NCBI RefSeq assembly: GCF_014302995.1
Contig: NZ_CP060295.1
Coordinates: 5,385,501-5,449,500 of the forward strand
Length of the DNA stretch: 64,000 nucleotides
Origin: Variovorax sp. PAMC26660
Lineage (GTDB): Bacteria; Pseudomonadota; Gammaproteobacteria; Burkholderiales; Burkholderiaceae_C
Direction: 5' to 3'
The notes below the pieces were generated by a model. The model did not search any database. It was not told the DNA's origin and saw only the letters and a program-made list of their open reading frames with translations. Shown here one piece after another: positions 28,184 to 64,000 of this stretch. The translations under genes and the position numbers were made by a program. Within the stretch, counting starts at the first letter, position 1; each line of letters opens with the position of its first letter.

Positions 28184-29872
28184 ATGCATGACATGAAGAA
28201 GAACGCCCCACCGAATTGCTGGAGAGCGGTGTGGCTGGCAGTGATGGCAATAGGTGCCCAAGGGGCGGCCTTTGCCCAGGCATCCGCACCCGCCGCAGCA
28301 TCCACAACCCCACCCGCCTCGGCGGCCACACCCTCGACCCCGACGCCGGTTGCCGCACCGGCTGCGACCCCCGAATCGACCCGCAAGGTCGACATTGCCG
28401 AATACATCGTGCGCGGCAACACCGTGCTCGACGCCCGCGCCATCGAGAAGGCGGTCACGCCCTTCCTCGGCCCCGAGCGCACGCTGAAAGACGTGGAGGG
28501 CGCGCGCGACGCGCTGCTCGCGGCCTATCAGGCGGCCGGCTACCAGTCGGTGTACGTCGACCTGCCCGAACAGCAGGTCACGCAGGGCATCGTGTTCCTG
28601 CAGGTCAATGAAACCCGCGTGGGCCGCGTGCGTGTGGTGGGCGCCGAATACAACTCGCCGGTCGACGTGCGCGACCAGGTGCCCGCGCTGAAAGAAGGCG
28701 GCGTGCCCAACTTCACTACCGCGCAGGCCGAACTCACCGCGCTCAATCGCAGCCCCAAGCGCCAGGTGATGCCGCTGGTGCGCCAGGGCGCGATGCCCGG
28801 CACCATGGACGTGGACCTGAAGGTCGACGACAGCAGCCCGTGGCGTGCCAGTGCCGGCTTGAACAACGACTACAGCGCCGACACGCGCAAGCTGCGCTCC
28901 ACGCTTTCGCTGGGCCACGACAACCTCTGGCAGATGGGCCACAGCGCGTCGATCAGTTTCTTCGGCGCGCCGCAGGACCTGAGCCAGACCAAGGTGTTCT
29001 CGGCTTCCTATACGGCGCCGCTGCCGGGCACCAACTGGAGCCTGGAAGCCAATGCGTACAAGTCCGACAGCAACGTGGCCACCGTCGGCGGCACCAGCGT
29101 GCTGGGCAAGGGCCACTCCATTGGCGTGAAGGCCACCTACACCGTGCCGAACACCGGCAACTGGTGGCACGCGTTCAGCGTGGGCGTGGACCTCAAGAAC
29201 AACCAGGAGGCGTTGCGCCTGAAGGGCAGCGGCGACACGGTGCCGCTGAAGTACGCGCCGATCACGCTGTCGTACTCGGGCTTTCGCCAGACGGACAAGA
29301 GCCAGTACGGCGTCGGCATCTCGCTGGTGGTGGGCACCAGCAGCTCTTTTGGCTATACCAGCGACTGGGCCGCCTTCGACTACAAGCGCTACAAGTCTTC
29401 GCCCAGTTTCATGGTGCTGAAGACCGACCTCAACGGCACGCACACCTTCGACGGCGGCCAGCAACTGGCCTTCCGCTTCAACGGCCAGATGACCGATTCG
29501 CCGCTGGTGTCCAGCGAGCAGATCGCCGGCGGCGGCATGAACTCGGTGCGCGGCTATCTCTCGGCCGAAGCCACCGGCGACTACGGCGTGGTCGGCTCGC
29601 TCGAAGTGCGCAGCCAGCCGCTGACCTTCCTGGGGCCGCTGGTCGAGAACTGGCGCGTGTATGCCTTCGCCGATGCGGCGCGGCTGCGCCTGAAGAGCCC
29701 GCTGCCCGAGCAGGCCGAGCGCTTCTCGCTGTATTCGGTGGGCCTGGGCACCACTTTCAAGATCAGCCAGTACTTCGCTGGCCGCGTCGATTTCGGCTAC
29801 CCGCTCACGGACGGTCCGCGCACCAAGAAGCACGACCCGCGCGTGAATTTCAGCTTCACCGCGAACTACTGA
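28184..29872 (+). CDS. Two-partner secretion outer-membrane pore (TpsB, ShlB/FhaC/HecB family)
   Basis: This 562-residue precursor forms the outer-membrane channel that exports a TpsA partner. It has a signal peptide (ending GAAFAQ), an Ala/Pro/Thr-rich linker to about residue 65, a POTRA_2-type domain (IAEYIVRGNTVLDARAIEKA through GIVFLQVNETRVG), a second POTRA region, and a C-terminal beta-barrel with the conserved lid-loop motif NSVRGYLSAE and a C-terminal aromatic (ANY). It is the first gene of a nine-gene operon that supplies its own ExbB/ExbD/TonB proteins. The natural partner is probably the giant TpsA at 59828. Confidence 0.9.
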   Translation: MHDMKKNAPPNCWRAVWLAVMAIGAQGAAFAQASAPAAASTTPPASAATPSTPTPVAAPAATPESTRKVDIAEYIVRGNTVLDARAIEKAVTPFLGPERTLKDVEGARDALLAAYQAAGYQSVYVDLPEQQVTQGIVFLQVNETRVGRVRVVGAEYNSPVDVRDQVPALKEGGVPNFTTAQAELTALNRSPKRQVMPLVRQGAMPGTMDVDLKVDDSSPWRASAGLNNDYSADTRKLRSTLSLGHDNLWQMGHSASISFFGAPQDLSQTKVFSASYTAPLPGTNWSLEANAYKSDSNVATVGGTSVLGKGHSIGVKATYTVPNTGNWWHAFSVGVDLKNNQEALRLKGSGDTVPLKYAPITLSYSGFRQTDKSQYGVGISLVVGTSSSFGYTSDWAAFDYKRYKSSPSFMVLKTDLNGTHTFDGGQQLAFRFNGQMTDSPLVSSEQIAGGGMNSVRGYLSAEATGDYGVVGSLEVRSQPLTFLGPLVENWRVYAFADAARLRLKSPLPEQAERFSLYSVGLGTTFKISQYFAGRVDFGYPLTDGPRTKKHDPRVNFSFTANY

Positions 29873-29938
29873 TCCACGCAGACGCCACCTTTTTCTTTCT
29901 ATCTTTTTCTCTCTACGAGTTTTTCGGAGAACCCTGTC

Positions 29939-31741
29939 ATGCGACGAATTCTTTTTATCGTGCTCACGTTGATGAGCACGCTCTTGCCGGGCCTGGCCCA
30001 CGCCTGGTGGCAAGCCGAATGGTCTTACCGCAAGCCCGTCACCATCGACGGCGGCCCGCAGGCCGGCGCCATCGGCAGCGATGCCGGCCGCGTGCCGGTG
30101 CTGGTGCGCCTGCACACCGGCAACTTCAAGTTCGAGGGTGTGAGCGAGACCGGCGCCGACCTGCGCTTCGTTGCGGCCGATGACAAGACCGTGCTGAACC
30201 ACCAGATCGAGCAGTTCGATCCGCTGCTGGGCATCGCGCTGGTGTGGGTCGATGTGCCCAACGTCTCGGCCGGCACGCCGCAGAAGCTGTGGATGTACTA
30301 CGGCAACCCGAAGGCTCCCGCCTCGGGCAACGGCCAGCGCAGCTTCGACCCCGACTACACGCTGGTCTACCACTTCGCCGAAGGCGCCGTGCCGCCGCGC
30401 GACACCACCGCCTACGCCAACAACGGCCAGACCTCGGCCGTGCCGGTCGAAGGCACTGTCATCGGCAAGGGCGCGCAGCTCGGCAGCGGCCCGCTGATGC
30501 TGCCCTCCACGCCGTCGCTCGCCGTGCAGGCCGGTGGCGCGCTGACGTTCTCCGCATGGGTCAAGCCCGACCAGCTCGGTGCCCGCCAGGCGATCTATGC
30601 CCGCCGCGACGGCGCCGGCGAACTCGTGGTCGGCATCGACCAGGGCGTGCCCTTCGTGCAGGTCAACGGCCAGCGCAGCACGCCCGGCCAGCCGATCCAG
30701 GCCGGCCAGTGGTCGCACCTTGCCGTGAAGGCCGAGGGCGACAGCGTGGCGCTGTATGTGGGCGGCCGTCCCACCGTGTCGCTGGCTGCGAAGCTGCCCG
30801 CGCTGAATACCGCTGCGGCTCTGGGTGCCGATGCACCGGGCAGCCTGCCGGTGGCGCAAGGTGCGCAACCCGCCGCCACTTTCGCCGCATTCACCGGCGC
30901 CATCGATGAAGTGCGCCTGTCGAAGGTGGCACGCGCCGATGCGCTGCTGCTGGCCGATGCCGTGTCGCAAGGCGCCGAGTCGCGCCTCACCGTGTTCGGT
31001 GCCGACGAGCAGCAGGCCGGCAAGAGCCACTTCGGCTTCATCCTGGCCGCGATGCCGCTGGACGCCTGGATCGTCGTGGGCCTGCTGGGCCTGATGATGG
31101 CGATCTCCTGGGCCATCATGATTGCCAAGGGCCGCCACTACGGCGCCACCTCGCGCGCCAACACCACCTTCATCGAGCACTTCCGCGAAGCTGCCGGCGC
31201 GCCACTCGATCGCCTGGCCGTGAACAACACCGTGCCGCACGAGGTGCGTGCCGATTCGTCGCTGTGGCGCCTGTATGAAGTGGCAGTGGACGAAATGCGC
31301 CGCCGCCACGACCGCGGCTACGACCTGAGCGCCGTGTCCAGCGCCACCATCGGCGCGATCCGTGCCGCCATGGACGGCGTGATGGTGCGCGAGATCGAGC
31401 GCATGTCCAAGCGCATGAACTGGCTCTCGACCACCATCGAAGGCGCGCCTTACGTCGGCCTGTTCGGCACCGTGATCGGCATCATGCTGGTGTTCGTCGT
31501 GGCGGCCATGGCCGGCGCGGTGGACATCAACTCGGTGGCCCCGGGCATGGCGGCCGCGCTGCTGTGTACCGCCGCCGGCCTGGGCGTCGCGATTCCCGCG
31601 CTGTTCGGCTACAACTGGCTCGCCTCGCGCTCGGACGCCATCACCGCCGACATGGCCGTGTTCGTCGACGAGTTCGTCACGCGCCTGGCCGAAGAGCAGG
31701 GCGAAGGCCGCTCGCTTCCGATGGCATCGGCGCGGGCCTGA
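29939..31741 (+). CDS. DUF2341-LamG-ExbB fusion protein
   Basis: This 600-residue precursor has a signal peptide ending in AHAWW, a DUF2341 domain (about 25-130, WSYRKPVTIDGG; LWMYYGNPKAP), and a concanavalin/LamG-like lectin fold (about 140-330, LVYHFAEG; LTFSAWVKPDQ; GAIDEVRLSKVA). The C-terminal ExbB/MotA/TolQ proton-channel domain (about 350-590) has the hallmark APYVGLFGTVIGIMLVF. The periplasmic lectin-like part is thus fused to the ion-driven motor. ExbD and TonB genes follow at once. Similar fusions accompany TPS genes in other proteobacteria, but their binding target is unknown. Confidence 0.88.
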   Translation: MRRILFIVLTLMSTLLPGLAHAWWQAEWSYRKPVTIDGGPQAGAIGSDAGRVPVLVRLHTGNFKFEGVSETGADLRFVAADDKTVLNHQIEQFDPLLGIALVWVDVPNVSAGTPQKLWMYYGNPKAPASGNGQRSFDPDYTLVYHFAEGAVPPRDTTAYANNGQTSAVPVEGTVIGKGAQLGSGPLMLPSTPSLAVQAGGALTFSAWVKPDQLGARQAIYARRDGAGELVVGIDQGVPFVQVNGQRSTPGQPIQAGQWSHLAVKAEGDSVALYVGGRPTVSLAAKLPALNTAAALGADAPGSLPVAQGAQPAATFAAFTGAIDEVRLSKVARADALLLADAVSQGAESRLTVFGADEQQAGKSHFGFILAAMPLDAWIVVGLLGLMMAISWAIMIAKGRHYGATSRANTTFIEHFREAAGAPLDRLAVNNTVPHEVRADSSLWRLYEVAVDEMRRRHDRGYDLSAVSSATIGAIRAAMDGVMVREIERMSKRMNWLSTTIEGAPYVGLFGTVIGIMLVFVVAAMAGAVDINSVAPGMAAALLCTAAGLGVAIPALFGYNWLASRSDAITADMAVFVDEFVTRLAEEQGEGRSLPMASARA

Positions 31742-31754: not shown

Positions 31755-32165
31755 ATGGCAACCCCAGCCAAGTTCTCGCCCCGCAGGCGCACGGGCGGCA
31801 TCAACATCACGCCCTTCGTGGACGTGCTGCTGGTGGTGCTGGTGATCTTCATCCTCACCAGCAACGCCAGCATTCCCGGCATCAAGGTCGACCTGCCGAA
31901 GGCCAGCGCCTCGGTGGCGCTGGAGAAGCCCAAGACCAAGGCCATCACGATCGACAACGCGGGCAACGTGTTCCTCGACGCCTACCCGGTCACGCTGCCG
32001 GAGCTGGAAGAGCGCCTGCGCACCGAGAAGGCCCTGTCTCCCGACTTCCCCGTGATCGTGCGCGGCGATGCCAGCGTGCAGTACGCGAAGGTGGTCGATG
32101 TGCTGGACCTGCTGCGTCGCATCGAGCTGAACCAGATCGGCCTTGTGACCGGCAAGCAGAAGTGA
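31755..32165 (+). CDS. ExbD-type biopolymer transport protein
   Basis: This 136-residue inner-membrane protein has one N-terminal transmembrane helix carrying the essential Asp (INITPFVDVLLVVLVIFIL) and a periplasmic domain. With the ExbB domain of the preceding gene it forms the proton channel that energises TonB. It starts 13 bases after the ExbB fusion gene and ends 10 bases before the TonB gene. The length is normal. Confidence 0.92.
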   Translation: MATPAKFSPRRRTGGINITPFVDVLLVVLVIFILTSNASIPGIKVDLPKASASVALEKPKTKAITIDNAGNVFLDAYPVTLPELEERLRTEKALSPDFPVIVRGDASVQYAKVVDVLDLLRRIELNQIGLVTGKQK

Positions 32166-32175: not shown

Positions 32176-32919
32176 GTGAAACCTCGCGATCCGACTTCTC
32201 CTCTTCCCACCGCGCACCGCGCGGGCGGGAAGGCCGGGACGCGCGGGCTGTGGCGCCGCTGGGGTGGGGTGGTCATCGGCGTGGCGATCGTCGCCGCGCT
32301 GGTGGCCCTGGTGTGGCATCTGCTGTCGGACACCGCGAGCAAGAAGCGCGTGGTGGCCGATGCGCCGATGCTGATGCTGCCGCCCCCACCGCCACCGCCA
32401 CCAGAGCCCGAGAAGCTGCCCGAGCCCGAGCCGGAAAAGATCAAGCCCGAAGTGGTCGAGAAGGAGCCCAAGCCGGTCGAGCCGCTGGAGCCGCCCAAGG
32501 ACGACGCGCCCCCAAGCCCATCGAAAGACCTGGGCGACCCGGTGACCATGGACAGCGCCGGCCAGGCCGGCAACGACGCCTTTGGTATCCAAGCCGGCAG
32601 CGGCGGCGGCATGAGCGGCACCGGTGCCGGTGGCGGCCTGGGCAGCGGCTCGTATGCCCGCTACGTCTCGAGCATGTTGCAGCAGGCTTTGTCGCGCGAT
32701 CCGCGCACCCGCCAGCTCGTGTTCGACGACATCCAGATCGACCTGTGGCTCGGCGCCGACGGCAAGACCGCGCGGGCGCAACTGGTGCGCAGCACCGGCA
32801 CGCCCGAATCCGACGAAGCGGTGCTCGCCATGGTGCGCGCCCTCGACCGCATCGACGAGAAGCCGCCGGCCTCGCTGCGCTTTCCGATGCGCGTGTCCAT
32901 GAAGGGACGCCGGCCATGA
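32176..32919 (+). CDS. TonB-family energy transducer
   Basis: This 247-residue protein has an N-terminal membrane helix (about 30-50), a Pro/Glu/Lys-rich periplasmic spacer (PPPPPPPPEPEKLPEPEPEK), a Gly/Ser-rich stretch, and a C-terminal TonB domain (VFDDIQIDLWLGADGKTARA). It starts with GTG after a GAGGAA site. The operon makes it the dedicated partner of this ExbBD pair; its outer-membrane client may be the TpsB, the porin or the STN protein at 57387, which is the open question of the system. Confidence 0.88.
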   Translation: MKPRDPTSPLPTAHRAGGKAGTRGLWRRWGGVVIGVAIVAALVALVWHLLSDTASKKRVVADAPMLMLPPPPPPPPEPEKLPEPEPEKIKPEVVEKEPKPVEPLEPPKDDAPPSPSKDLGDPVTMDSAGQAGNDAFGIQAGSGGGMSGTGAGGGLGSGSYARYVSSMLQQALSRDPRTRQLVFDDIQIDLWLGADGKTARAQLVRSTGTPESDEAVLAMVRALDRIDEKPPASLRFPMRVSMKGRRP

Positions 32920-32998
32920 ACTCCGTGACCCGAGTGACCGCCACTGCGGCCACCGCCGACGCCCCCTGCCAGTCCCATTCAATCCTGTGAACGAAGCG

Positions 32999-34786
32999 AT
33001 GAACCATCTCAAAAACATCCAGAGCAGGGGCGCCATGCCGACCCTGCGCAAATGCGCGCTCGCGGCGGCCGTGGCCTCCGTGTTCGTTTTCGCGGCCACG
33101 AGTGCCACCGCGCAAACCGGTGCAGCGCCTGCCGAATCCGCCATGGTCAAGCTGATCCGCGGCCTGATCCAGAGCGGCACGCTTGCCAAGGACGTTGGCG
33201 AGGCGCTGCTGGCCCAGGCCCAGACCGAAGCCATTGCCGCGCAGCAGGCGCAGCGCATGTCGGCCGCCACCACCGCCGCATCGGCCAGCGTGGCCGGTGG
33301 CGTGCGGCTCGAAGCCGGCGACGTGCGCGTGCCCTACATCTCGCAGACCGTGCGCGACCAGATCCGCGACGAGATCAAGGCCCAGGTCATGGCCCAGGCC
33401 CAGACCGAAGGCTGGGCCGCGCCCAACGAAACGCCCGAGTGGAGCAAGCGCATCCGCGTCGAAGGCGACGTGCGCGTGCGCAACGAGTCGCGCAACTACG
33501 CCGGCAACAACAGCAACATCGAGATCAACTGGTCCGAGCTCAACAAGAGCACGGGCTACGACGTCAACCCGAACACCAACCTTGCGCTGCCGTCGATCCT
33601 CAACACGCGGCAAGACCGCAAGAACCTGTTCCGCGCCCGCGCGCGGCTGGGCGTGTACGCCGACCTCACCGAGAACACCAAGGCCGGCATTCGCCTGGCC
33701 TCGGGCAGCGACGACAGCCCGGTGTCGACCACGCAGACGCTGGGCGGCGGCCTGGGCAAGAAGAGCGTGTGGCTCGACCAGATGTGGATCTCGCACAAGC
33801 CGGTCGACTGGCTCACCGTGACGGCCGGCCGCTTCGGCAACCCCTTCATGTCGACCGACCTGCTGTACTCCAGCGACCTGAACTTCGACGGCATTGCCGC
33901 GCAGTTCGAGAAGAAGCTCGCGTCGAACAAGGACCTCACGCTGTTCGGCACGCTCGGCCTGATCCCGCTCGAATACTCGTCGGACAATTCGCCGAGCCGC
34001 AGCCAGGCCAAGATGAAGAGCGAGAACAAGTGGCTCTTCGGCGCGCAGGCCGGCGCCGAGTGGAAGATCGACGCAGACAACCGCTTGCGCGGCGCTCTTG
34101 CTTACTACAACTTCAACAACATCAGCGGCAAGGTCTCGCAGCCCTGCGCGCTGTATGCCGGCGCCGACGGCTGCAGCACCGACTGGTCGCGCCCGGCCTT
34201 CATGCAGAAGGGCAACACGCTCATGCTGCTGCGCGACATTTCGCTGGACCCGCTCAACCCGGCCGGCACGCCGCAGCCCCAGTACGTGGGCCTGGCCTCG
34301 AAGTTCCGCCTGATCGACCTGAACCTGCGCTGGGACACGGCCGTGGCCGGCAACAACCTGCGCCTGGATGCCAACTTCGTGAAGAACACCGCGTACGACG
34401 CCAACGACATCTGGAACCGCGCGGGCATTCGCGGCGCCATCGTCAACAACTTCGGCGCCACCGGCGGCACCGGGAAGGCCGACTACAAGAGCGGCGGCAA
34501 CGCCTACATGGTGCAGGCCACCTACGGCAAGCCGGCACCGTCGGCACGCGGCGACTGGAACGTGCTGGCGGGCTACAAGCGGATCGAGCCCGACGCGATG
34601 CCCGACGGCTACAACGACTCGACCTTCCACGGCGGCGGCACCAATGCGCGCGGCTACTTCCTGGGCGGCTCGTACGCGATCGACAAGAACATGTGGTTCA
34701 CCGGCCGCTGGATCTCGACCAAGGCCGTCTATGGAGCGCCGCTGGCCATCGACACCCTGCAGCTCGAATTCAATGCGCGTTTCTAA
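32999..34786 (+). CDS. Large putative outer-membrane porin
   Basis: This precursor of about 595 residues has a signal peptide ending ATSATAQ and a helical region of about 100 residues rich in Ala/Gln (LIRGLIQSGTLAKDVGEALL), followed by a beta-barrel. Family segments include RARARLGVYADLTENTKAGI, VTAGRFGNPF and a terminal Phe (LEFNARF), the usual mark for barrel assembly. It belongs to the family annotated as putative porin that co-occurs with DUF2341 genes. A GTG 12 bases earlier is an alternative start. It may work with TonB or anchor the secreted protein. Confidence 0.83.
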   Translation: MNHLKNIQSRGAMPTLRKCALAAAVASVFVFAATSATAQTGAAPAESAMVKLIRGLIQSGTLAKDVGEALLAQAQTEAIAAQQAQRMSAATTAASASVAGGVRLEAGDVRVPYISQTVRDQIRDEIKAQVMAQAQTEGWAAPNETPEWSKRIRVEGDVRVRNESRNYAGNNSNIEINWSELNKSTGYDVNPNTNLALPSILNTRQDRKNLFRARARLGVYADLTENTKAGIRLASGSDDSPVSTTQTLGGGLGKKSVWLDQMWISHKPVDWLTVTAGRFGNPFMSTDLLYSSDLNFDGIAAQFEKKLASNKDLTLFGTLGLIPLEYSSDNSPSRSQAKMKSENKWLFGAQAGAEWKIDADNRLRGALAYYNFNNISGKVSQPCALYAGADGCSTDWSRPAFMQKGNTLMLLRDISLDPLNPAGTPQPQYVGLASKFRLIDLNLRWDTAVAGNNLRLDANFVKNTAYDANDIWNRAGIRGAIVNNFGATGGTGKADYKSGGNAYMVQATYGKPAPSARGDWNVLAGYKRIEPDAMPDGYNDSTFHGGGTNARGYFLGGSYAIDKNMWFTGRWISTKAVYGAPLAIDTLQLEFNARF

Positions 34787-34796: not shown

Positions 34797-35549
34797 GTGT
34801 CCAGAAAAATCTTCCCGGCGCTGGTGCTGGCAACGCTTGCCGCCACGGCCGGCGTGACCCACGCACAGCAACAGCCGCAGGGCCAGAGCATGGAGGAGCG
34901 GCTTCGCGCGCAGTTGCGCGTGACGACCACGCAGCTCCAGCAGGCACAGAACGAGCTGGCCGCGCTCAAGGCGGGGCAGCCTGCGGGCACGCCAGCCGCG
35001 GGTGCTGCGGCCGGTGCGGCGCCGGCCAAGTCCGACATCGAGGCGCTCAAGAAGGAGCTTGCGCAAAGCCAGTCGCAACTGGCTGCCGAGCGCCAGGCTC
35101 ATGGGCAGGCGAGCGCCGGCAGCCAGCAACTGCGCCAGCAGGCGCAGGCCACGAGCGAGAAGGCCACCGCGCAGATCGCCCAATACCGTGGCGCGTATGA
35201 CGATCTGCTGAAGATGGCGCGCGCCTCAGAAGCCGAGCGCCAGCGCCTGGCCACCGAGGCCGCGACGCACCGCACCGCGATGACGCAATGCGAGGCCAAG
35301 AACACGCAGCTCTATGCCGTGGGGCAGGAGATATTGCGTGCCTACGAAACGGTGGACCTGGGCAGCGTGCTGGCGTCGCGCCAACCTTTTGCCGCGCAGA
35401 GCCGCGTCAAGTTCGAGCAGATCGCGCAGCAGTACGGCGACAAGCTGTACGAAGGCAAGTTCGATGCGCGCGCGGTGAATGCGCCGGCACCGGCACCTGC
35501 TGCCGCCGCTGCATCCGCAACCACACCCGCTTCGGGAGAAAAGCAATGA
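34797..35549 (+). CDS. Exported coiled-coil protein
   Basis: This 250-residue precursor starts with GTG after AAGGAG and has a signal peptide ending THAQQQ. The mature protein is a long coiled coil (heptad-rich LRAQLRVTTTQLQQAQNELA and further stretches to about residue 165), then a globular segment with YAVGQEILRAYETVDLGS, and an Ala/Pro tail. It probably spans or scaffolds the periplasm for the secretion apparatus. The gene lies within the operon, and its stop overlaps the next start (ATGA). Confidence 0.75.
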   Translation: MSRKIFPALVLATLAATAGVTHAQQQPQGQSMEERLRAQLRVTTTQLQQAQNELAALKAGQPAGTPAAGAAAGAAPAKSDIEALKKELAQSQSQLAAERQAHGQASAGSQQLRQQAQATSEKATAQIAQYRGAYDDLLKMARASEAERQRLATEAATHRTAMTQCEAKNTQLYAVGQEILRAYETVDLGSVLASRQPFAAQSRVKFEQIAQQYGDKLYEGKFDARAVNAPAPAPAAAAASATTPASGEKQ

Positions 35550-37318: not shown

Positions 37319-37395
37319 GCGCTTCGGATGGAGGTCGGATGCGGCCCTGATCCACCGGGATTCGAAGACACCGGCGCAGTGACTTCCCGCCCGCT

Positions 37396-52177: not shown

Positions 52178-52182
52178 GCGTG

Positions 52183-54849: not shown

Positions 54850-54992
54850 TTGAAACGCTTTCTGACGGAGGGCTGAAGGCCGGCCGCGCGATTCTAGGAA
54901 GCCGTTGCAAGGGCGCTTGTCGCTCAAATGTTCTATATGACTGGGAAGGAAAAGTGCTGTGGAATCTGTCGATATCTTGGTGAAGCGCCGAG

Positions 54993-55750: not shown

Positions 55751-55885
55751 TTCAATGTTCCTGCGTGGAGATCGGGCGAATCGCGATGGTTTTGGGGCGT
55801 GAGCGAGGCCTTGAAGTATCAGCGCCCTTCATTTTTGGCCCGCGATGCCGATAGTCCTCTTTTACGTCAACAACCAAGGAACAAG

Positions 55886-56263
55886 ATGCTGACTGCAATC
55901 GGTGCCACAGGGAGCGCGGGGAGCGCGGGGAGCGGGCCCAACGTCAATGCGGAGATGGCGAAGATCCAGCGCCAGATCGCGGGAATACAGGAGCAGATGA
56001 AAGAAAAGCAGGGCCTTCTGCTCACGACGCCCGTGGGCGAGCCGCGAAAGGCGCTTCAACAGCAACTGCAGTCCATGGCGGGCCAGATCGCCATGCTGCA
56101 GGCGCAGTTGAATGCATTGCGCGCCGCCGGCGCGCTGCAGAGCGCGACAGCTCAGCTCAGCGGGACAGGCAAGACATCGGATGACAACGCGGCAAAGGCC
56201 GACAAGGCACGCGTCAATGCCAGTGGCGTGCCGATCGGCTCCGTGCTGAACGTGGAGGCCTGA
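55886..56263 (+). CDS. FlxA-like small coiled-coil protein
   Basis: This 125-residue protein starts at an ATG with AAGGA upstream. It has a Gly/Ser-rich start (GATGSAGSAGSGPNV), a long heptad coiled coil (EMAKIQRQIAGIQEQMKEKQ; LQQQLQSMAGQIAMLQAQL) and a polar tail. The pattern matches the FlxA-like family, proteins of unknown role first noted among flagellar-regulon genes. There are no flagellar genes in the window. Confidence 0.6.
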   Translation: MLTAIGATGSAGSAGSGPNVNAEMAKIQRQIAGIQEQMKEKQGLLLTTPVGEPRKALQQQLQSMAGQIAMLQAQLNALRAAGALQSATAQLSGTGKTSDDNAAKADKARVNASGVPIGSVLNVEA

Positions 56264-56276
56264 CGCGAAGAAAGAA

Positions 56277-56306
56277 AGGGCGGCAGGCAGACCCGCACGC
56301 CGCCCT
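56277..56306. terminator. Hairpin between convergent genes
   Basis: AGGGCGGC and GCCGCCCT are separated by 14 bases between convergent genes ending at 56263 and 56306. It has no strong T-run, so it is a weak terminator candidate. Confidence 0.35.
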
Positions 56307-57181
56307 CAGCCTTTGTGGCCCACCACCCGCGCGATCCAGGCCAGCAGCACGGCCACGACTTCCTCGCGGTTGGTCTCGTTCAGCGTTTCGTGGCGCGCGC
56401 CACCGAACACGTGGCATGACACGTCGCGCAGCCCCGCCTCGCGGTAGCGCTGCACCAGCGGGTAGAACCACTCGGCCTTGTTGCTGACCGGGTCCTCGTC
56501 GCCGACGAACAGGTACAGCGGCAGGTCGGCCCGGATGCGCGTTCGCAGGGCTGCGGGCGCGAGGTCGGCGAGGTTCGCGAAGATCGATCCCATGCCCTCG
56601 GCCGAGACCGTGAATCCGCACAGCGGATCGGCGATGTAGGCATCGACTTGCGCCGGGTCGCGGCTGAGCCAGTCGAAAGGCGTGCGAACGTCGGGCAGCG
56701 CGGCGTTCATGTCTTCCAGCCGGAAGCCGGCTTGCAACGCGGTGCCCAACAGGTCGAGCGCCGTGGTGCCCGAGAGCACCGCGCCGGACAACAGCGCGCC
56801 GTGCTGGGCCAGGTAGTACTGCGTGGCGAACGAGCCCATGCTGTGGCCGACAAGAATCAGCGGCAAGCCGGGGTGCACGCCGCGAACGTGGCGGCTCAGC
56901 AGGGCCATGTCGTCCACCAGTCCGGCGAATCCGCGGGGACCGAATTCACCAAGCTCGTCGCGCGCCGCCGCGTCCTTGCCGTGGCCGCGATGCTCGTTCG
57001 CATAGACGACGTAGCCGGCCTGCGTCAACGCGTCGGCCAACGGCCGGTAACGCAGCGAATGCTCGCCCATGCCATGCGCCAATTGGATGATGGCGCGCTG
57101 CGTCGGGCCTTGCCAGCGGTGCGCCTCCACTTTGCGGCCATCGTTGGCGGTCAGGTCGAAGTGTGTCTCTGTGCTTGGCAT
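56306..57181 (-). CDS. Monoacylglycerol-lipase-like alpha/beta hydrolase
   Basis: This hydrolase of about 291 residues has the oxyanion motif LAHGMGEHSLRYRPLADAL, the nucleophile elbow GHSMGSF, the acid in VGDEDPVSNKAEWF and the His in GARHETLNE. The pattern is that of the monoacylglycerol lipase/lysophospholipase group. The start is 57181, with 57211 as the alternative. It is divergent from the STN-domain gene but seems unrelated to the secretion system. Confidence 0.87.
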   Translation of the reverse strand: MPSTETHFDLTANDGRKVEAHRWQGPTQRAIIQLAHGMGEHSLRYRPLADALTQAGYVVYANEHRGHGKDAAARDELGEFGPRGFAGLVDDMALLSRHVRGVHPGLPLILVGHSMGSFATQYYLAQHGALLSGAVLSGTTALDLLGTALQAGFRLEDMNAALPDVRTPFDWLSRDPAQVDAYIADPLCGFTVSAEGMGSIFANLADLAPAALRTRIRADLPLYLFVGDEDPVSNKAEWFYPLVQRYREAGLRDVSCHVFGGARHETLNETNREEVVAVLLAWIARVVGHKG

Positions 57182-57386
57182 GCGGTGTCTCGGTGAGAAG
57201 GATGTCGCCATCGTAGGGGGCGGTCGCTGCGCGGGGCATCAGGGCTTTCCAGATTTGCCCCGAAGTGAACCGGGCGCATTGCATTCAACCTGTCACAAAT
57301 GCTCACTAGCATCCGGTCGACTGAAAGTAGTACGGCCACGGTTCTCGCTGGCCCGCAGCAAATTCCATTTCGTGACAGGACCAGGC

Positions 57387-58076
57387 ATGTGGTGCATTGC
57401 TCGGTCGCGGTGGTGGGTGAGCGTCTTGACCTTGATTTTCGGAATCCTGTCCTTGGGTGCATCCTTCGCCACCGTTGCCGATCGCGTGAGCTTCGACATT
57501 CCCGCGCAGCCGCTGGCTTCGGCGTTGCAGGCATTCGCGCAGGCGAGCGGGCAGTCGGTGTTCTTCGACGGGCAGCTCGCGGCCGGGCTCGAATCGATGC
57601 CCGTGCGCGGGGAGTTGGCGCCGCGCGATGCACTGCATCGGATGCTGGCAGGCACGCGGCTGGTGGCGCGCTATGCCGACGACACCACCTTCACGCTTGT
57701 CGAGACCGAGGCTGCCGTGCAGGCCCCGGTGGCTGCATCTGCTGCGCCATCGGTCGAAGCCACGGGCGATGGCAACGCGCGCATCGTGCAGCAGGCGCTG
57801 GAGCGCACGCTGTGCCGCTGGCCGCGTGTGCAGCCCGGCGACTACCGCGCGCTGGTGCAGTTGTGGGTCGGCCCGGCCGGCCATGTGCGGCGCACGCGCC
57901 TGCTCAGCTCGACGGGCGTTGCGCAGCGCGATGCGGCGCTCGAAGCCGCGATGAACACGCTGGTGCTGAGTCCGCCCAAAGACGGCACGCCGGACGAACC
58001 CCTCACGATCCTGCTGCTGCCCCGCACCGGGCGCAGCACCGATGTGTGCGCGGGCCTGATACCCGCCGCGTCCTGA
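57387..58076 (+). CDS. STN-domain signalling protein without barrel, VreA-like
   Basis: This 229-residue exported protein has a signal anchor (SVLTLIFGILSLGASFA) and a secretin/TonB short N-terminal (STN) domain (about residues 35-105: FDIPAQPLASALQAFAQASG; GELAPRDALHRMLAGT). A C-terminal part of about 100 residues resembles a TonB C-terminal domain (VQLWVGPAGHVRRTRLLSST). It lacks the beta-barrel of FecA-type receptors. A small STN protein beside an ECF sigma and a FecR-like gene matches the VreA-VreI-VreR arrangement of P. aeruginosa. It likely passes a periplasmic signal to the anti-sigma factor encoded next. Confidence 0.85.
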   Translation: MWCIARSRWWVSVLTLIFGILSLGASFATVADRVSFDIPAQPLASALQAFAQASGQSVFFDGQLAAGLESMPVRGELAPRDALHRMLAGTRLVARYADDTTFTLVETEAAVQAPVAASAAPSVEATGDGNARIVQQALERTLCRWPRVQPGDYRALVQLWVGPAGHVRRTRLLSSTGVAQRDAALEAAMNTLVLSPPKDGTPDEPLTILLLPRTGRSTDVCAGLIPAAS

Positions 58077-58083: not shown

Positions 58084-58629
58084 GTGGAGCAAGACACCCC
58101 CGGCTTCCTGCGCAGCCTGCTCACGAGCCGCTACCTCGACTTCAGGAACCGGCTGCGCCGCCGCCTCGGTTCCGAGGACGTGGCCGACGACGTGCTGCAT
58201 GAAACCTGGCTGCGCGTGAACCGCATGAGCGACCCCGGCGCGGTGCAAAGCCCGATGGCCTACCTGCTGCGCATTGCGTCGAACGTGGCGGAAGACCGGC
58301 GCATCTCGAACGGTCGGCTGCTCGACTTCGTGGAGGTCGAGGAACTGCTGCACTTTGCCGATGAAAGCCAGGACCCGGCGCGCCTGTCCGAAGCCCGCAG
58401 CGAAGTGCAGGCGCTGGAGCGGGCGCTCGAAGAGCTGCCGCGCCGCCGCCGCGAAATCTTCCTGGCCTCGCGCGTGGACGAAACGCCGCACAAGGACATC
58501 GCGACGCGCTACGGCGTGTCGGTGCGGATCGTCGAGCGTGAAGTGAAGGCCGCGCTGGTGCATTGCGCCGGGCGATTGGGGCGCGATGTGATCCAGCGGT
58601 TCGGTCCCGGGGCCGGAAAACAGTCTTAG
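58084..58629 (+). CDS. ECF RNA polymerase sigma factor (FecI/VreI-like)
   Basis: This 181-residue sigma factor starts with GTG seven bases after the STN gene. It has region 2 (DVADDVLHETWLRVNRM; MAYLLRIASNVAEDRR) and region 4 (ELPRRRREIFLASRVDETPH; DIATRYGVSVRIVEREVKAA). This is the iron-starvation/FecI group, controlled by a membrane FecR-type protein. Its targets probably include the TpsA gene downstream and perhaps the operon at 28184; no promoter consensus could be derived here. Confidence 0.88.
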   Translation: MEQDTPGFLRSLLTSRYLDFRNRLRRRLGSEDVADDVLHETWLRVNRMSDPGAVQSPMAYLLRIASNVAEDRRISNGRLLDFVEVEELLHFADESQDPARLSEARSEVQALERALEELPRRRREIFLASRVDETPHKDIATRYGVSVRIVEREVKAALVHCAGRLGRDVIQRFGPGAGKQS

Positions 58630-58634: not shown

Positions 58635-59630
58635 ATGCTGGCCGTGAACACCCCCAACGACGACCGCGCCGCGCTGCAGGCGCAGGCGCAAGACTGGCTC
58701 GTGCGCCTCACCTCGGGCCGGGCCACGACGGTGGACGCGCAGGACTTCAAGCGCTGGTGCGCCCAGAGCCCGCTGCATGCGCAGGTGATGGCCGAGACGA
58801 CCCGCGTGTGGGACGTGGCGCGGCCCGCGGCCGAAGCCGTGGCGCAGCGCATGCGTGCCGTGCAGCCACCGCGCGCCGCCGTCATCGCACGAACGCACCC
58901 GAACCGCCGCTACATCCTCGGCGCCGCGCTCGCGGCCGGCGCGGCGGCCTTCGTCGTGGTGCGGCCACCGGGCCGGCTCTGGCCCGCGCTGTCGGACATG
59001 ACGGCCGACTACAGCACCGGCACCGGCGAGCAACGCCAGGTGGTGCTGGCCGACGCGGCGGTGGTCGAGATGAACACGCAGACCAGCTTCAACCTCTCGC
59101 GCGCATCTGAAGCAGAGGCGGCCACGCTCGACCTGCTGGACGGCGAGGCGCAGGTGCTGCTCGACGCATCGCGCGCCACGCCGTTCACGATGACGGTCGG
59201 CGGCGGCCGGCTCGTGGCTTCCGCCGCCAGCCGCTTCAACGTGCGCGCCACCGGGTCCGAGGTGTGCGTGACCTGCATGGCCGGTTCGGTCGAACTGAAC
59301 TACGGCGGCCGCGTGCTGGTCGCGAAAGAAGCGCAGCAGATCAGTTATGGCAAACGCGGCGCGCAAGTGGCACGCGCGCCCGACATGTCCACCGTCAACG
59401 CATGGCGCGACCGCGTGCTGGTGTTCAACGACACGCCGCTCGCGGCCGTGGTCGAGGAGATCAACCGCTACCGCCCCGGGCGCTTGATAGTGACCAACGC
59501 CGAGCTGGGCCGACGCAAGGTGCAGGCGCGCCTGCGGCTCGAACAGCTCGCGCGCATCGAGACCCTGATCGGCGCCAGCTACGGCGCCAAGGTGACGACG
59601 CTGCCGGCGGGCATCGTGCTGCTCGGCTAG
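58635..59630 (+). CDS. FecR-like anti-sigma factor (VreR-like)
   Basis: This 331-residue protein spans the inner membrane once (YILGAALAAGAAAFVVV, about residue 95). The cytoplasmic N-terminus has the sigma-binding helix region (AQDWLVRLTSGRATTVDAQD; FKRWCAQSPLHAQVMAET). The periplasmic FecR domain has YSTGTGEQRQVVLADAAVVE and a C-terminal STN-like stretch (TPLAAVVEEINRYRPGRLIV) that could dock to the STN protein. It starts 5 bases after the sigma gene. It completes the signalling triad. Confidence 0.88.
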   Translation: MLAVNTPNDDRAALQAQAQDWLVRLTSGRATTVDAQDFKRWCAQSPLHAQVMAETTRVWDVARPAAEAVAQRMRAVQPPRAAVIARTHPNRRYILGAALAAGAAAFVVVRPPGRLWPALSDMTADYSTGTGEQRQVVLADAAVVEMNTQTSFNLSRASEAEAATLDLLDGEAQVLLDASRATPFTMTVGGGRLVASAASRFNVRATGSEVCVTCMAGSVELNYGGRVLVAKEAQQISYGKRGAQVARAPDMSTVNAWRDRVLVFNDTPLAAVVEEINRYRPGRLIVTNAELGRRKVQARLRLEQLARIETLIGASYGAKVTTLPAGIVLLG

Positions 59631-59827: not shown

Positions 59828-62800
59828 ATGAGCAAACAGACATTCCGCCGCGCACCGGTCGCGCACGCGGTCGCCATCGCACTGGCCATGGCGGGCCTTG
59901 CGGGCAACGCACATGCGCAACGCGCGTTCAGCGCAGCCTGGATGGCGCAGAAGAACGTGGCGCAAGGCACGGCGGCAGCCACGGGCTATCTGCCCAACGG
60001 CACGCCAGCCTCGATGCTGACGAACCCGCTGGCGCAGCAGCAAAAGGCCAATGAACAACTGCAACGCTCCATCGGCAATCTGAACCTCGCGGCGCAGGCG
60101 ATTGCCGCGCAGCAGGCAGCGCAAGCGGCGGCACGGCTGGCCGCGCAGAACGGCGGCACCGACGTGCCTGACGGCCTGGTCGAAGGCGGCCTGAAGGTCG
60201 ACACGAACAGCCTCACGGCCGGCTGGCACAACGCGAATGCGCCGACACCCGGCACGGCCGCAGGCCGCACCACGGTGACGGTCCAGCAGACCGGCGACAA
60301 GGCGATCCTGAACTGGGAAACCTTCAACGTCGGGCGCAACACCACGGTCGAGTTCAGGCAACAGGCCGACTGGGCGGTGCTCAACCGCGTCAACGACCCG
60401 GCCGCGCGCCCGTCGCAGATTCGCGGGCAGATCAAGGGCGACGGCACGGTGCTCATCGCCAACCGCAACGGCGTGGTGTTCAGCGGCAGCAGCCAGGTCG
60501 ACACGCGCAACCTGGTGGCGGCTGCGGCGAGCATCAAGGATTCGCAGTTCACCACCGGTGGCATCTATTCCAACGGCACCGCGCCGAGCTTCACCACGCT
60601 GAAGGAAGACCTGGGCAAGGTCGAAGTGCAGGCGGGCGCGCGCATCACGACGAAGGAGCCGGGCTCCGTCACGCAGGGTGGCGGCTATGTGCTGCTGCTC
60701 GGCAAGGAGGTGTCGAACGCGGGCGAGATCGCCACCCGCAAGGGGCAGACGCAGATGGCGGCGGGCGACAGCTTTCTGATTCGCAAGGGCATCGGCACCG
60801 ACGGCAACACCTTCTCGACCACGCGCGGCAACGAGGTCGCACCGCAGTTCGTGCCCGACAGCACGGCGGGCAAGGTGAGCAACACCGGCCTGATCACCGC
60901 GCGCGAAGGCGACATCACGCTGGCCGGCCGCGACGTTCGGCAGGACGGCGTGGCGGTGGCCAGCTCCACTGTGAGTGCGCGCGGCACTGTGCACCTGCTG
61001 AACTCGGCCGCCGACAAGCTCGGCAACGTGAGCATGGGCAAGGGCGCCGTCACGGCCGTGGTGATCGAGGACGACGGCAAGGCCAGCGCGCTCGACAGCC
61101 AGCGCGATGCGCTCATCAAGGAGTCGGCCGCGCAGGACGTACTTCGCACTGCGGCGGCGAGCGGCGCCTTCGACAACCTGGCCAACCTGGCGGACCGCCG
61201 TGACCAGTCGCGCATCGAGATCGTCTCGGGCGGCGACATCCGCTTCGAGGGCGAATCGCTCACGCTCGCCACCGGCGGGCAGATCGCGGCCAGCGCCGCG
61301 CGCCGCAGCTTCGTGGCAGACAAGGCGCGGCTCGACGTGTCCGGCGCGGTGGGCGTGAACGTGGCAATGGAGTCCAACAACGTCAAGGTGAACGTGCAGG
61401 GCAACGAACTGCGCGATTCGCCGTCGAACCGCGAGAGCGGCAAGCTGTTCAACAACGACGTGTGGATCGACCGGCGCAACCTCGTGCGCGTGGCGCCCGG
61501 CGTGGGCGGCTACGAAGGCGAGCGCTGGTATGCGGCGGGCGGCCTGCTCGAAGTGGGCGGCTACCTGGGCAACCAGGGCCACGGCATCGGCGAATGGGCC
61601 ACGCAGGGCGGCACGGTGTTGCTGGGCGGCAAGGAAGTGGTCACGCAGGCGGGCTCCAGCGTGAACCTCTCGGGCGGCACGCTGAACGTGCAGACCGGCT
61701 TCATCAACCAGACCTGGCTCAAGGGCAGCGACGGCCGGTTGTACAGCTTGAACAAGGCGCCGTCGGACATGGTGTTCGAGGGCGTCTACAAGGGCTTCGA
61801 GGCCGAGCACGTGCGCTGGGGCAAGAAGAACACCGAGTACTTCTACAACCCGCTGATCGGGCCGCAGCGCCTGCTGGAAAACGGCTACACGGTCGGCCGC
61901 GATGCGGGCCGGCTGGTGGTGAGCGCACCCACGGCGGTGCTCGAAGGCGACATCGTGGCCGATGTGTTCAACGGCGCGCGCCAGACGCGGGCGCGCGACG
62001 CCATCGAGGACGGCTACAAGCAGGCACAGACCGCAGTGGCACGCGGCGGCGCGCTGGCGGTGGGGCGCTATGCGTCGCAAGGCCGTATCGACCTGTTCGA
62101 CACCGACGTGCGTTTTGGCGACATCGCGCAGGCGACGCTGCAGATGGCGGCCAGCGATGCGCTGGGCACCGAGCGCATCGGCACGCTGTGGCTCGACAGC
62201 GGCCACCTGAACGGGCAGCACCTGGCGGTGCTGGACATCGGCACGCTGGGCACCGTCAAGATCGACAAGGCCGTCACGCTTGCCGATGGCGGCCAGATGA
62301 GCCTGCTCGGCGCGTTCATCGACATCGGCGCAACGGTCACGACACGCGGAGGCAAGTTCAGCGCCGGCAATGTCTTCCAGTCAACGTTGAACGGTGCGCC
62401 GGCACGCGCGCTGGTGAAGGATGCGGCTTCGTCGATCACGCTGCGCGATGGCGCCGCGCTCGATCTGCGCGGACGCCGCACCGACACCGTTGCCACCCCG
62501 GAGGACGCGGCCACGCTGGCCTACCTGGACGGTGGCATGGCGCGCATCGAATCGACGCACGGCGTGATGATCGAGAAGGGCAGCCTGATCGACGTGTCTT
62601 CCGGCGCGGCGCTGCTGGCCAAGGGCAAGCAGAAAGGCGGCAAGGGCGGCAGCGTGGCGCTGGTGGCCGATTCGGCCGCCACGGCCACGGATGCGCAGGG
62701 CGTGCTTTCGCTGGGCGGCGAGATTCGCGGCCACGGTGTGAGCGGCGGCGGCATGCTGCAGATCGAGACGGGCAACGCCATCGTCATCGGTGCGGACCCG

Positions 62801-64000
62801 GCGGCGCAGGACGCCACGGCGCTGGTGCTCGATGCGTCGCGCCTGCAGTCGGGCTTTTCTGCCTACGACATCAACGGGCACAAGGGGCTGTCGGTTGCGC
62901 CGGGTGCGCAGGTCGATGTGGCGATGCCGGTCTACCAGATTGCGCCGTACGCCACGGCCGGCAATGAGGGTGGCTTCGCGCTGCAATTGTGGACGCCGCC
63001 GCTGCTGCAGCAGGACGTGCCCAACCGCCAGGTCGTGCAGCGCCAGGGCGCCGACCTCGTGCTGCGCGCGCAGCGCCGCGTCAGCGAAGGCGGCGATGTC
63101 GCCATCGGCGCGGGCTCGGTGGTGTCGGTCGATCCCGGCCGCTCGATCCGCCTGCTCGGCGGCGGCAAGAGCAGCTTCGTGGTGGACGGCAGGCTCAACG
63201 CCTGGGGCGGCAGCATCGCCATCGACATCGAGGCGCCCGATTTCACCTCGTCGCTCAGCACGTCGAACCAGGCGCACAACCGCTCGGTGTGGATCGGCGA
63301 GGGCGCGGTGCTCGACGTGGCGGCGCGTGCGCAAACGGGCACCGACGCCAGCGGCCGCCGCTACGGCACGGTGCGCAACGGCGGCACCATCTCCATCGGT
63401 GGCGCGCTCGACTGGGAAGCACGGGGAGCGGCCAAGGCGCCCGACCTGGCATTGGTGATCCGGCCCGGTGCGGTGCTCGATGCCTCCGGCAGCAGTGCCA
63501 TCATCGACGCGCCGGTCGACGGCCGCTGGCGCGAGATGAATGTGGCCAGCAATGGCGGCAGCATCGTGCTCAAGTCGGCGCACAGCCTCTACCTCGACGG
63601 CACGCTGCGCGCACGCGCGGGCGGCGCCAATGCGGCAGGCGGCACGCTGGCGGTGGCGCTCGAAGCGCCGGTCTTCTCGACCATCTACCCGGTCGACAAC
63701 GAGATCCGGCAGGCGCGCGAGCTGATCCTGTCACAGACGCAGCAACCCAGCGGATTGCCTTCGACGCTGAAGCCGGGCCAGGCCGATGCGGCGCTGGCCT
63801 ACGGCAAGGGGCGGCTGGGCGTGGACCAGGTACAGGCCGGTGGCTTCGGCAACCTGTCGCTGCTGGTCAACGGCCTGCTGAGCTTCGACGGCAACGTCGA
63901 CCTGTCGACCGCGCAGAGCCTGCGCATCTACGCCGGCAGCTTCGCACTGGCCGAGAGCGCAGCAACGGATTCGCAGGTGAGGCTGGCGTCGTCGTACCTG
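59828..64000 (+). CDS. Giant filamentous-haemagglutinin-type TpsA exoprotein (5' part)
   Basis: An open frame of 1391 codons runs off the right edge without a stop. It starts with an extended signal peptide (RRAPVAHAVAIALAMAGLAG). An Ala/Gln-rich segment at about 50-115 (AAQAIAAQQAAQAAARLAAQ) is followed by the TPS secretion domain with ILNWETFNVGRNTTVEF (about 160) and IANRNGVVFSGSSQVDTRNL (about 210). Long beta-helix sequence then continues (GLITAREGDITLAGRDVRQD; GGSIVLKSAHSLYLDGTLRA). The full protein is probably several thousand residues. Antisense frames across it are chance. Its exporter should be the TpsB at 28184; the CSS triad just upstream probably controls it. Confidence 0.92.
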   Translation, partial: MSKQTFRRAPVAHAVAIALAMAGLAGNAHAQRAFSAAWMAQKNVAQGTAAATGYLPNGTPASMLTNPLAQQQKANEQLQRSIGNLNLAAQAIAAQQAAQAAARLAAQNGGTDVPDGLVEGGLKVDTNSLTAGWHNANAPTPGTAAGRTTVTVQQTGDKAILNWETFNVGRNTTVEFRQQADWAVLNRVNDPAARPSQIRGQIKGDGTVLIANRNGVVFSGSSQVDTRNLVAAAASIKDSQFTTGGIYSNGTAPSFTTLKEDLGKVEVQAGARITTKEPGSVTQGGGYVLLLGKEVSNAGEIATRKGQTQMAAGDSFLIRKGIGTDGNTFSTTRGNEVAPQFVPDSTAGKVSNTGLITAREGDITLAGRDVRQDGVAVASSTVSARGTVHLLNSAADKLGNVSMGKGAVTAVVIEDDGKASALDSQRDALIKESAAQDVLRTAAASGAFDNLANLADRRDQSRIEIVSGGDIRFEGESLTLATGGQIAASAARRSFVADKARLDVSGAVGVNVAMESNNVKVNVQGNELRDSPSNRESGKLFNNDVWIDRRNLVRVAPGVGGYEGERWYAAGGLLEVGGYLGNQGHGIGEWATQGGTVLLGGKEVVTQAGSSVNLSGGTLNVQTGFINQTWLKGSDGRLYSLNKAPSDMVFEGVYKGFEAEHVRWGKKNTEYFYNPLIGPQRLLENGYTVGRDAGRLVVSAPTAVLEGDIVADVFNGARQTRARDAIEDGYKQAQTAVARGGALAVGRYASQGRIDLFDTDVRFGDIAQATLQMAASDALGTERIGTLWLDSGHLNGQHLAVLDIGTLGTVKIDKAVTLADGGQMSLLGAFIDIGATVTTRGGKFSAGNVFQSTLNGAPARALVKDAASSITLRDGAALDLRGRRTDTVATPEDAATLAYLDGGMARIESTHGVMIEKGSLIDVSSGAALLAKGKQKGGKGGSVALVADSAATATDAQGVLSLGGEIRGHGVSGGGMLQIETGNAIVIGADPAAQDATALVLDASRLQSGFSAYDINGHKGLSVAPGAQVDVAMPVYQIAPYATAGNEGGFALQLWTPPLLQQDVPNRQVVQRQGADLVLRAQRRVSEGGDVAIGAGSVVSVDPGRSIRLLGGGKSSFVVDGRLNAWGGSIAIDIEAPDFTSSLSTSNQAHNRSVWIGEGAVLDVAARAQTGTDASGRRYGTVRNGGTISIGGALDWEARGAAKAPDLALVIRPGAVLDASGSSAIIDAPVDGRWREMNVASNGGSIVLKSAHSLYLDGTLRARAGGANAAGGTLAVALEAPVFSTIYPVDNEIRQARELILSQTQQPSGLPSTLKPGQADAALAYGKGRLGVDQVQAGGFGNLSLLVNGLLSFDGNVDLSTAQSLRIYAGSFALAESAATDSQVRLASSYL

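What the first reader, a model, noticed from the sequence alone, without database searches (positions are those of the whole stretch)
28184..64000. Energised and autoregulated two-partner secretion system, split into two blocks
The block 28184-37318 encodes TpsB, an ExbB fusion, ExbD, TonB, porin, coiled-coil protein, PpiC chaperone, YbjN-like and a small protein in one operon. The block 57387-64000 encodes STN protein, ECF sigma, FecR-like protein and the giant TpsA. Nothing else in the window would serve as partner for either. The parts correspond to the Pdt two-partner system and the Vre/PUMA3 cell-surface-signalling system of P. aeruginosa (recalled from the literature). TPS export is normally described as needing no energy input, so a dedicated proton-driven ExbBD-TonB set with a TpsB is mechanistically interesting. 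Sequence shows the genes; the joint function is inference.
Basis: partly seen in the sequence, partly recalled or inferred. Interest (0 to 1): 0.85.

Follow-up and report, generated by a model that had tools for sequence, protein, structure and literature searches.

The report
Motor-linked export hub for giant proteins
A bacterium close to Variovorax carries one outer-membrane exporter in an operon with its own proton-motor genes, plus four giant secreted proteins that seem to share it; in the genomes sampled this kind of giant protein and the motor were found in exactly the same genomes, although export of this type is described as needing no energy source.

Summary
Block 28184-37318 is TpsB, ExbB fusion, ExbD, TonB-like, Porin_5, coiled-coil, PpiC, YbjN and a small protein; block 57387-64000 is STN, ECF sigma, FecR and the start of a 4164-aa TpsA. 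No TpsB follows that TpsA. The genome has four TpsB: three lie near three TpsA, and the window TpsB is left for four orphan TpsA, each behind its own STN-sigma-FecR cassette. So this is one hub with four customers, not two halves. All four orphans end in DUF3739. In 347 Pseudomonadota genomes DUF3739 and the ExbB fusion occur in the same 14; in 250 genomes of the home family in the same 29 (one further DUF3739 hit lies under cut-off). TPS domains occur in 135 of the 347. The motor is thus tied to this TpsA class, while Vre-type signalling was seen beside it in only 7 of the 14. The blocks are 12 bp apart in one relative (OK212). Which sigma drives the hub is open. The gene set is the Pdt/PUMA3 neighbourhood described in 2009; I found no print record of the DUF3739-motor tie in the held library. 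What the motor does is unproven.

The parts
28049..28099 (+). Conserved element before the hub operon: ATGA..TGACA..CGTCTA (pho-box-like part plus ECF-type -10; both readings recalled)
   Evidence: Composite pattern before tpsB in 48 of 81 regions, 0.0 expected from 50 shuffles; CGTCTA in 56 of 81, 2.5 expected; sequence
28184..29872 (+). tpsB, outer-membrane transporter (POTRA + ShlB barrel)
   Evidence: Pfam ShlB 2.7e-22, POTRA_2 4.2e-14; 27 hub TpsB form one clade apart from the genome's three other TpsB, support 97/99, only three outgroup rows and long branches
29939..31741 (+). exbB fusion: DUF2341, LamG, TolQ/ExbB-type proton channel
   Evidence: Pfam; NCBIfam tolQ 138.5 bits, exbB 73.9 bits, both under cut-off; T511 and T544 invariant in 11 sequences
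31755..32165 (+). exbD
   Evidence: Pfam ExbD 3.4e-29; membrane Asp23 in 78 of 78 rows
32176..32919 (+). TonB-like protein: one hydrophobic segment, Pro-rich stalk, TonB/TolA-like C-terminus
   Evidence: tonB_Cterm 25.6 bits, cut-off 27.1; recognised in 76 of 80 hub loci, the four misses on short or cut contigs
32987..34786 (+). Porin_5 putative porin
   Evidence: Pfam Porin_5 3.4e-192; model mean pLDDT 69.4, 16 strands and N-terminal helices
34779..35549 (+). coiled-coil protein (PA0697-like by position); start uncertain
   Evidence: no Pfam family over cut-off; recognised in 68 of 80 hub loci
35546..36490 (+). PpiC-type peptidyl-prolyl isomerase
   Evidence: Pfam Rotamase; behind the hub in 36 of 80 loci
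36519..37055 (+). YbjN-family protein
   Evidence: Pfam YbjN 4.4e-8; 68 of 80 loci
37052..37318 (+). small protein, end of the hub operon; start uncertain
   Evidence: open frame; recognised in 22 of 80 loci
37319..57386 (.). interposed 20 kb; genes examined: MFS, hydrolase, GntR-aminotransferase, MerR, ABC transporter, beta-propeller-like protein and others
   Evidence: Pfam on 9 chosen frames there, translations; in L097 window 37288 and 57271 lie 12 bp apart
57387..58076 (+). VreA-like protein: STN + TonB-like C-terminal domain
   Evidence: Pfam STN 32.1 bits over cut-off, TonB_2 18.9 under cut-off; hhalign of its C-terminus with the hub TonB family 98.3%
58084..58629 (+). ECF sigma factor (VreI-like)
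   Evidence: Pfam
58638..59630 (+). FecR-like regulator (VreR-like); start uncertain
   Evidence: Pfam FecR + DUF4880
59828..64000 (+). tpsA A1 with TPS domain; runs on to 4164 aa (G000:C1:5457822), DUF3739 at residues 3949-4059

Best explanation
A motor-coupled two-partner secretion hub. SHOWN: TpsB, a TolQ/ExbB-type channel whose A subunit carries a DUF2341-LamG extension, ExbD, a TonB-like protein and Porin_5 form a conserved gene set, and in two genome draws the ExbB fusion occurs in exactly the genomes that hold a DUF3739-ended TpsA over cut-off. In this genome one hub is left for four such TpsA, each behind its own STN-sigma-FecR cassette. INFERRED: the hub TpsB exports all four; the proton-driven TonB-like rod reaches the outer membrane and does work on the TpsB-TpsA complex (late export, release or display of the DUF3739 end), with Porin_5 as a docking barrel; the VreA-like protein, whose C-terminus resembles the hub TonB, reads the state of the same outer-membrane partner and passes it to FecR and sigma.
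For: Same 14 of 347 genomes carry DUF3739, the ExbB fusion and full-length Porin_5, in 11 genera and 7 families; TPS domains at E <= 0.001 are in 135 of 347. Second draw: same 29 of 250, 18 genera; three genomes are in both draws. Two members of the home genus lack both (G515, G577). A DUF3739 TpsA lies upstream of tpsB on the same strand in 47 of 72 hub loci with over 3 kb upstream: 28 with a gap under 500 bp, 18 of 500-3500 bp, one of 6.2 kb; elsewhere it lies between tpsB and exbB or after the porin. ExbD Asp kept in 78 of 78, ExbB Thr511 and Thr544 in 11 of 11; their role is recalled. Own genome: four TpsB, seven TpsA, four of them orphans with DUF3739. VreA-like C-terminus matches hub TonB.
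Against: No experiment. I saw no TonB box in the parts of the TpsB, porin and TpsA alignments that one search showed (its output was cut). In P. aeruginosa a PA0695 (tonB) mutant overexpressing VreI was as virulent as the rest in zebrafish (PMC2729926), and VreA is not needed for sigma activity (PMC7035377, PMC4971064). The TPS review says no electrochemical gradient powers type V export (PMC5422565). Co-occurrence shows a joint role, not that the motor acts on export; genomes are related and no tree-aware test was made. The pairing of the four TpsA with the hub TpsB is by elimination. 25 of the 72 hub loci show no DUF3739 end upstream, and 6 show neither that nor STN + sigma.
Confidence: 0.45

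Rival explanations
1. Capture and import: the TpsA is a surface device that binds a nutrient (perhaps a phosphorus- or sugar-rich polymer) and the motor energises uptake through Porin_5, not secretion, much as HxuA serves the TonB-dependent HxuC.
For: Full-length Porin_5 is in the same 14 of 347 genomes as the motor. HxuABC is a precedent (PMC5422565, passage). The P. aeruginosa set is phosphate-starvation controlled. The extension on the channel subunit holds a concanavalin-like Pfam domain.
Against: The porin model shows 16 strands and no plug domain (mean pLDDT 69.4); the 50 best fold matches shown are porin-type barrels, AlgE and OmpM1. No TonB box seen.
Confidence: 0.25
2. Tol-like envelope support: the motor holds or repairs the outer membrane around very large TpsA, with the porin as an OmpM-like tether, and does not move the TpsA.
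For: The channel subunit scores better to TolQ than to ExbB; the best porin fold match is the attachment porin OmpM1, TM 0.73 by target length but 0.42 by query length.
Against: Two other giant TpsA frames in this genome (3516 and 3659 aa) lie far from the only ExbB fusion, so size alone does not explain the tie.
Confidence: 0.15
3. Co-regulated neighbours: motor and TPS share a regulon but work separately.
For: In P. aeruginosa the Hxc type II system is in the same regulon.
Against: Same-genome pattern in two draws, and operons with TpsA inside the set and no signalling genes in the 30-35 kb read (G019, G291).
Confidence: 0.1

Closest known systems
PdtA/PdtB-ExbB2-ExbD2-TonB4-PA0696 to PA0700 with Vre/PUMA3, P. 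aeruginosa (PMC2729926, PMC7035377, PMC4971064; passages, and section 20 of the last)
   Same: TpsA, TpsB, ExbB, ExbD, TonB, putative porin, PA0697, YbjN, PpiC, and VreA (STN + TolA/TonB-like), VreI, VreR. Pseudomonas hub loci L101, L103, L105 and L106 have the order TpsB-ExbB-ExbD-TonB-porin-cc-YbjN-PpiC, as PA0692-PA0699.
   Different: Here four STN-sigma-FecR-TpsA cassettes lie over about 1.4 Mb beside one hub, and PpiC precedes YbjN. Hxc and PhdA counterparts were not looked for.
Repeated PUMA3 clusters in Janthinobacterium and Rhodopseudomonas palustris (PMC2729926, Discussion passage)
   Same: Four signalling clusters in one genome and one tpsB-exbBD-PA0696 set for several tpsA.
   Different: There three clusters are followed by tpsA and the fourth by tpsB; here all four are followed by tpsA. 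DUF3739 is not named in the passages read.
Haemophilus HxuABC (PMC5422565, passage)
   Same: A TPS tied to a TonB-dependent step.
   Different: HxuC is a TonB-dependent transporter; here the motor is in the operon and the barrel is Porin_5.
Tol and Ton motors (TolQ 8odt, ExbB 5sv0; sequence search)
   Same: Same channel core.
   Different: DUF2341-LamG extension on the A subunit; a 2025 stator survey names DUF2341 among appendages of unknown function (PMC12505986, passages).

Membership tests
Two-partner secretion (type Vb) | TpsB with POTRA and ShlB-type barrel | tested here: met
   Pfam
Two-partner secretion (type Vb) | TpsA with N-terminal TPS domain | tested here: met
   PF05860
Two-partner secretion (type Vb) | TpsA is exported by this TpsB | not testable with these tools
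   pairing by elimination only
Two-partner secretion (type Vb) | export not powered by an electrochemical gradient | not testable with these tools
   stated for the class in PMC5422565 (passage)
Pdt/PUMA3-type locus | tpsB-exbB-exbD-tonB-porin in this order | tested here: met
   P. aeruginosa order
Pdt/PUMA3-type locus | VreA with STN and TolA/TonB-like C-terminus, ECF sigma, FecR-like VreR | tested here: met
   VreA anatomy
Pdt/PUMA3-type locus | hub and tpsA read by the sigma of the locus | tested here: inconclusive
   Conserved element before the hub; CGTCTA also before own A4 tpsA and those of L037, L049, L064, but not before the window tpsA, and in Pandoraea the hub has it in 12 of 12 loci while tpsA has it in 0 of 11
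Pdt/PUMA3-type locus | PdtA ends in DUF3739 and PA0693 carries DUF2341 | not tested
   P. aeruginosa proteins were not fetched; other Pseudomonas have the whole ExbB fusion (L101, L105) and DUF3739-type ends (L105, L106)
TonB-dependent transporter (for the porin) | barrel with plug domain and TonB box | tested here: not met
   Pfam Porin_5; model with 16 strands and no plug, mean pLDDT 69.4
Contact-dependent inhibition (CdiA) | polymorphic C-terminal end | tested here: not met
   the four TpsA share a conserved DUF3739 end; immunity genes were not searched

The most novel reading that the evidence does not exclude
A class of type V secretion that runs on proton-motive force: a dedicated Tol/Ton-type motor with a lectin-like periplasmic extension does mechanical work on giant DUF3739-ended TpsA at the outer membrane, one motor hub serves several TpsA, and a soluble TonB mimic (VreA) reports the state of the machine to the sigma factors.
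Probability: 0.35. Interest if true: 0.9.

Novelty: new variant of a known kind. Interest (0 to 1): 0.62.

Why it matters
Type V secretion is described as having no energy source (PMC5422565, passages). A same-genome tie between one TpsA class and a proton-type motor makes that statement testable for a subset that one Pfam domain picks out. It also gives a context to DUF2341 on channel subunits, named among appendages of unknown function in 2025 (PMC12505986, passages), and to DUF3739, for which the held library has no paper. A genome with one hub and four customers is a natural test of shared export.

Tried and rejected
Rejected: a second TpsB beyond the window. Rejected: the two blocks as each other's only partner, since the A1-type sigma is beside the hub only in L097 of 33 loci with a sigma.

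Led nowhere: the fold of the TpsA end (mean pLDDT 51.7, not used); solved relatives of the porin (one chance-like hit, E 0.14) and of the TpsA end (none); a shared -35 between tpsA and hub.

Limits: one search used the wrong frame for the porin and was repeated. One search failed by a script error and was redone. Upstream regions were set from stop-to-stop frames, so some true promoters may lie elsewhere; only own A2 and A4 were re-set by hand. The 80 hub loci are the best 80 of 153 relatives of the ExbB fusion, so they cannot test its presence; the genome draws can. Seven genomes with only partial Porin_5 matches (best 119 bits) were set aside where I say full-length. One DUF3739 hit under cut-off (G407, 20.8 against 27 bits) has no hub. 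Neighbour genes were found with HMMs built from window proteins, so distant genes may be missed. Part of the output was cut.
Full report
Where it lies. The window is G000:C1:5385501-5449500 of a 7.39 Mb single-contig genome.

The observation. The porin is read in the frame 32987-34786. The TonB-like protein scores 25.6 bits against a cut-off of 27.1 for tonB_Cterm. The channel subunit is nearer to TolQ (138.5 bits) than to ExbB (73.9 bits), both under their cut-offs, and solved relatives rank the same way. The ExbD membrane aspartate is kept in 78 of 78 rows and ExbB threonines 511 and 544 in 11 of 11; that these are the functional residues is recalled.

One hub, four customers. The genome holds four TpsB and seven TpsA. 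By the distances of the hits, three TpsB lie near three TpsA (4.20-4.21, 6.73-6.74 and 3.157-3.158 Mb). The fourth TpsB is the hub. The other four TpsA are A1 (window, 5445328-5457822), A3 (frame from about 5474453), A2 (from about 5970182) and A4 (from about 4536572). Each has STN, ECF sigma and FecR genes upstream. All four carry DUF3739, and the genome has no fifth match. A1, A2 and A3 are 46-58% identical over long stretches; A4 is more distant. The pairing of the four with the hub TpsB is by elimination.

The main result. In 347 Pseudomonadota genomes (drawn evenly, completeness at least 95), DUF3739 is in 14, the ExbB fusion at E <= 1e-60 in 14, and they are the same 14; full-length Porin_5 is in the same 14, and seven others have only weak partial Porin_5 matches. 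The TPS domain at E <= 0.001 is in 135 of 347, all 14 included. In a second draw, 250 genomes of the home family, the fusion is in 29; DUF3739 over its cut-off is in the same 29, and a 30th genome has a hit under cut-off without hub. Three genomes are in both draws. Positives span 11 genera and 7 families in the first draw and 18 genera in the second; two members of the home genus have neither (G515, G577). Related genomes are not independent and no tree-aware test was made.

Gene neighbourhoods. In 80 fetched hub loci TpsB is the next recognised gene before the ExbB fusion in 80; ExbD is recognised in 77, the TonB-like gene in 76, the porin in 74, coiled-coil and YbjN in 68 each, PpiC behind the hub in 36 and the small protein in 22. 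The misses of ExbD, TonB and porin are on short or cut contigs. The six Xanthomonadales loci that reach past the porin show no coiled-coil, YbjN or PpiC gene. Of 72 loci with more than 3 kb upstream, 47 have a DUF3739 end upstream of tpsB on the same strand; STN plus sigma are on 31 of 80; 6 of the 72 have neither. In the 14 genomes of the first draw the TpsA lies upstream of tpsB, between tpsB and exbB, after the porin, or on another contig (for 13 of them). In the stretches read, VreA-like STN with sigma and FecR is seen in 7 of the 14 (G000, G310, G195, G255, G215, G135, G159); G019, G291, G122 and G204 show none; G094 and G233 show sigma and FecR beside a 1069-aa STN frame, more like a full receptor, and G324 is cut there. 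Absence in a stretch is not absence in the genome. G019 and G291 have TpsB-TpsA-ExbB-ExbD-TonB-porin runs. So the core is six genes and the signalling cassette looks like an attachment.

The split. In Variovorax sp. OK212 (L097) window stretches 27931-37288 and 57271-61600 lie 12 bp apart, so here about 20 kb of other genes lie between them. But of 33 loci with a sigma near the hub, the sigma is closest to A4's in 19 (up to 88%), to A3's in 13 and to the window's only in L097 (87%).

Promoters. Before tpsB the composite ATGA..TGACA..CGTCTA occurs in 48 of 81 regions, 0.0 expected from shuffles, and CGTCTA in 56 of 81 against 2.5. The first part resembles a pho box (consensus recalled). Among 31 tpsA regions CGTCTA is in 4: own A4, L037, L049, L064, all with an A4-like sigma; L066, with a 68% A4-like sigma, lacks it. 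Against a simple reading: in Pandoraea the hub has CGTCTA in 12 of 12 loci and tpsA in 0 of 11. The window tpsA lacks it. So which sigma reads the hub is open. In P. aeruginosa VreI and PhoB are both required for pdtA and for the phdA-pdtB-exbB2 unit (PMC4971064, passages and section 20).

Mechanism. The set has an outer-membrane pore for a giant protein, a proton-type motor with a rod, and a second barrel with helices at its N-terminus. The VreA-like C-terminus matches that of the hub TonB family (hhalign 98.3%, 91 columns, 25% identity, one comparison); the 2009 paper modelled VreA on TolA/TonB in general (PMC2729926, passages). I take the motor to work on TpsA at TpsB and VreA to read the same partner. 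The first rests on co-occurrence; the second faces the finding that VreA is dispensable for sigma activity in P. aeruginosa. The TpsA end has a conserved strand of the type PSVFTVRVLGFG, and two of the 23 rows aligned (G019, G291) end right after it. Its fold could not be predicted well. The porin model has 16 strands and no plug; the best match is OmpM1.

Novelty. The gene set and its regulation are known in P. aeruginosa (PMC2729926, PMC7035377, PMC4971064; passages and one section), where the Ton genes are called uncharacterised. That several tpsA may go with one tpsB cluster was noted in 2009. In the held library no paper names DUF3739; the six that name DUF2341 are not on TPS by title (listing; one in passages); the TPS review has no 'ExbB' (occurrence count). 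The listings (30 of 34, 15 of 40, 30 of 105 and 20 of 126 papers shown) gave no title on motor-dependence of a TPS. The library holds open-licence papers only; the Pdt papers by Faure and others were not read.

Noticed in passing
window 53389-54927 (-) and L029:10316-11827 (-): A repeat protein that looks like a beta-propeller (blade motif PTGRFAYVAN..., my reading; the Pfam run used another frame) lies between hub and a signalling cassette here and in KBW07.
   Followed up: partly
L011:17191-17652 and L011:17668-19062: Soon after tpsA A1: a protein with a TonB_2 match under cut-off (and an STN-model hit), then a trypsin-like protease with PDZ domains.
   Followed up: partly
L023:18219-18983 and L024:16765-17871; also L145:13270-13977 in another genome: A further ECF sigma gene overlaps or follows the end of tpsA A2 and A3; no FecR match was found beside them.
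   Followed up: partly
L023:4983-5456: An extra FecR-like fragment lies between fecR and tpsA A2.
   Followed up: no
L122/L123 (G094) and L140 (G233): Near these hubs a sigma and FecR gene go with a 1069-aa STN frame, the size of a full TonB-dependent receptor, not the short VreA type.
   Followed up: no
G000:C1:4213252 and 6731260: Two nearly identical conventional TpsB (end branches 0.012 and 0.042) near giant TpsA: likely a recent duplication.
   Followed up: no
DUF3739 TpsA per ExbB fusion varies from one to four; the window genome has the most among the matches listed.
   Followed up: partly
G019, G291, G135, G402, G485, G569: Some ExbB matches are flagged with one stop inside; in G019 and G291 the gene reads as one open frame of about full length, so the flag may come from the match running past the gene's end.
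   Followed up: partly
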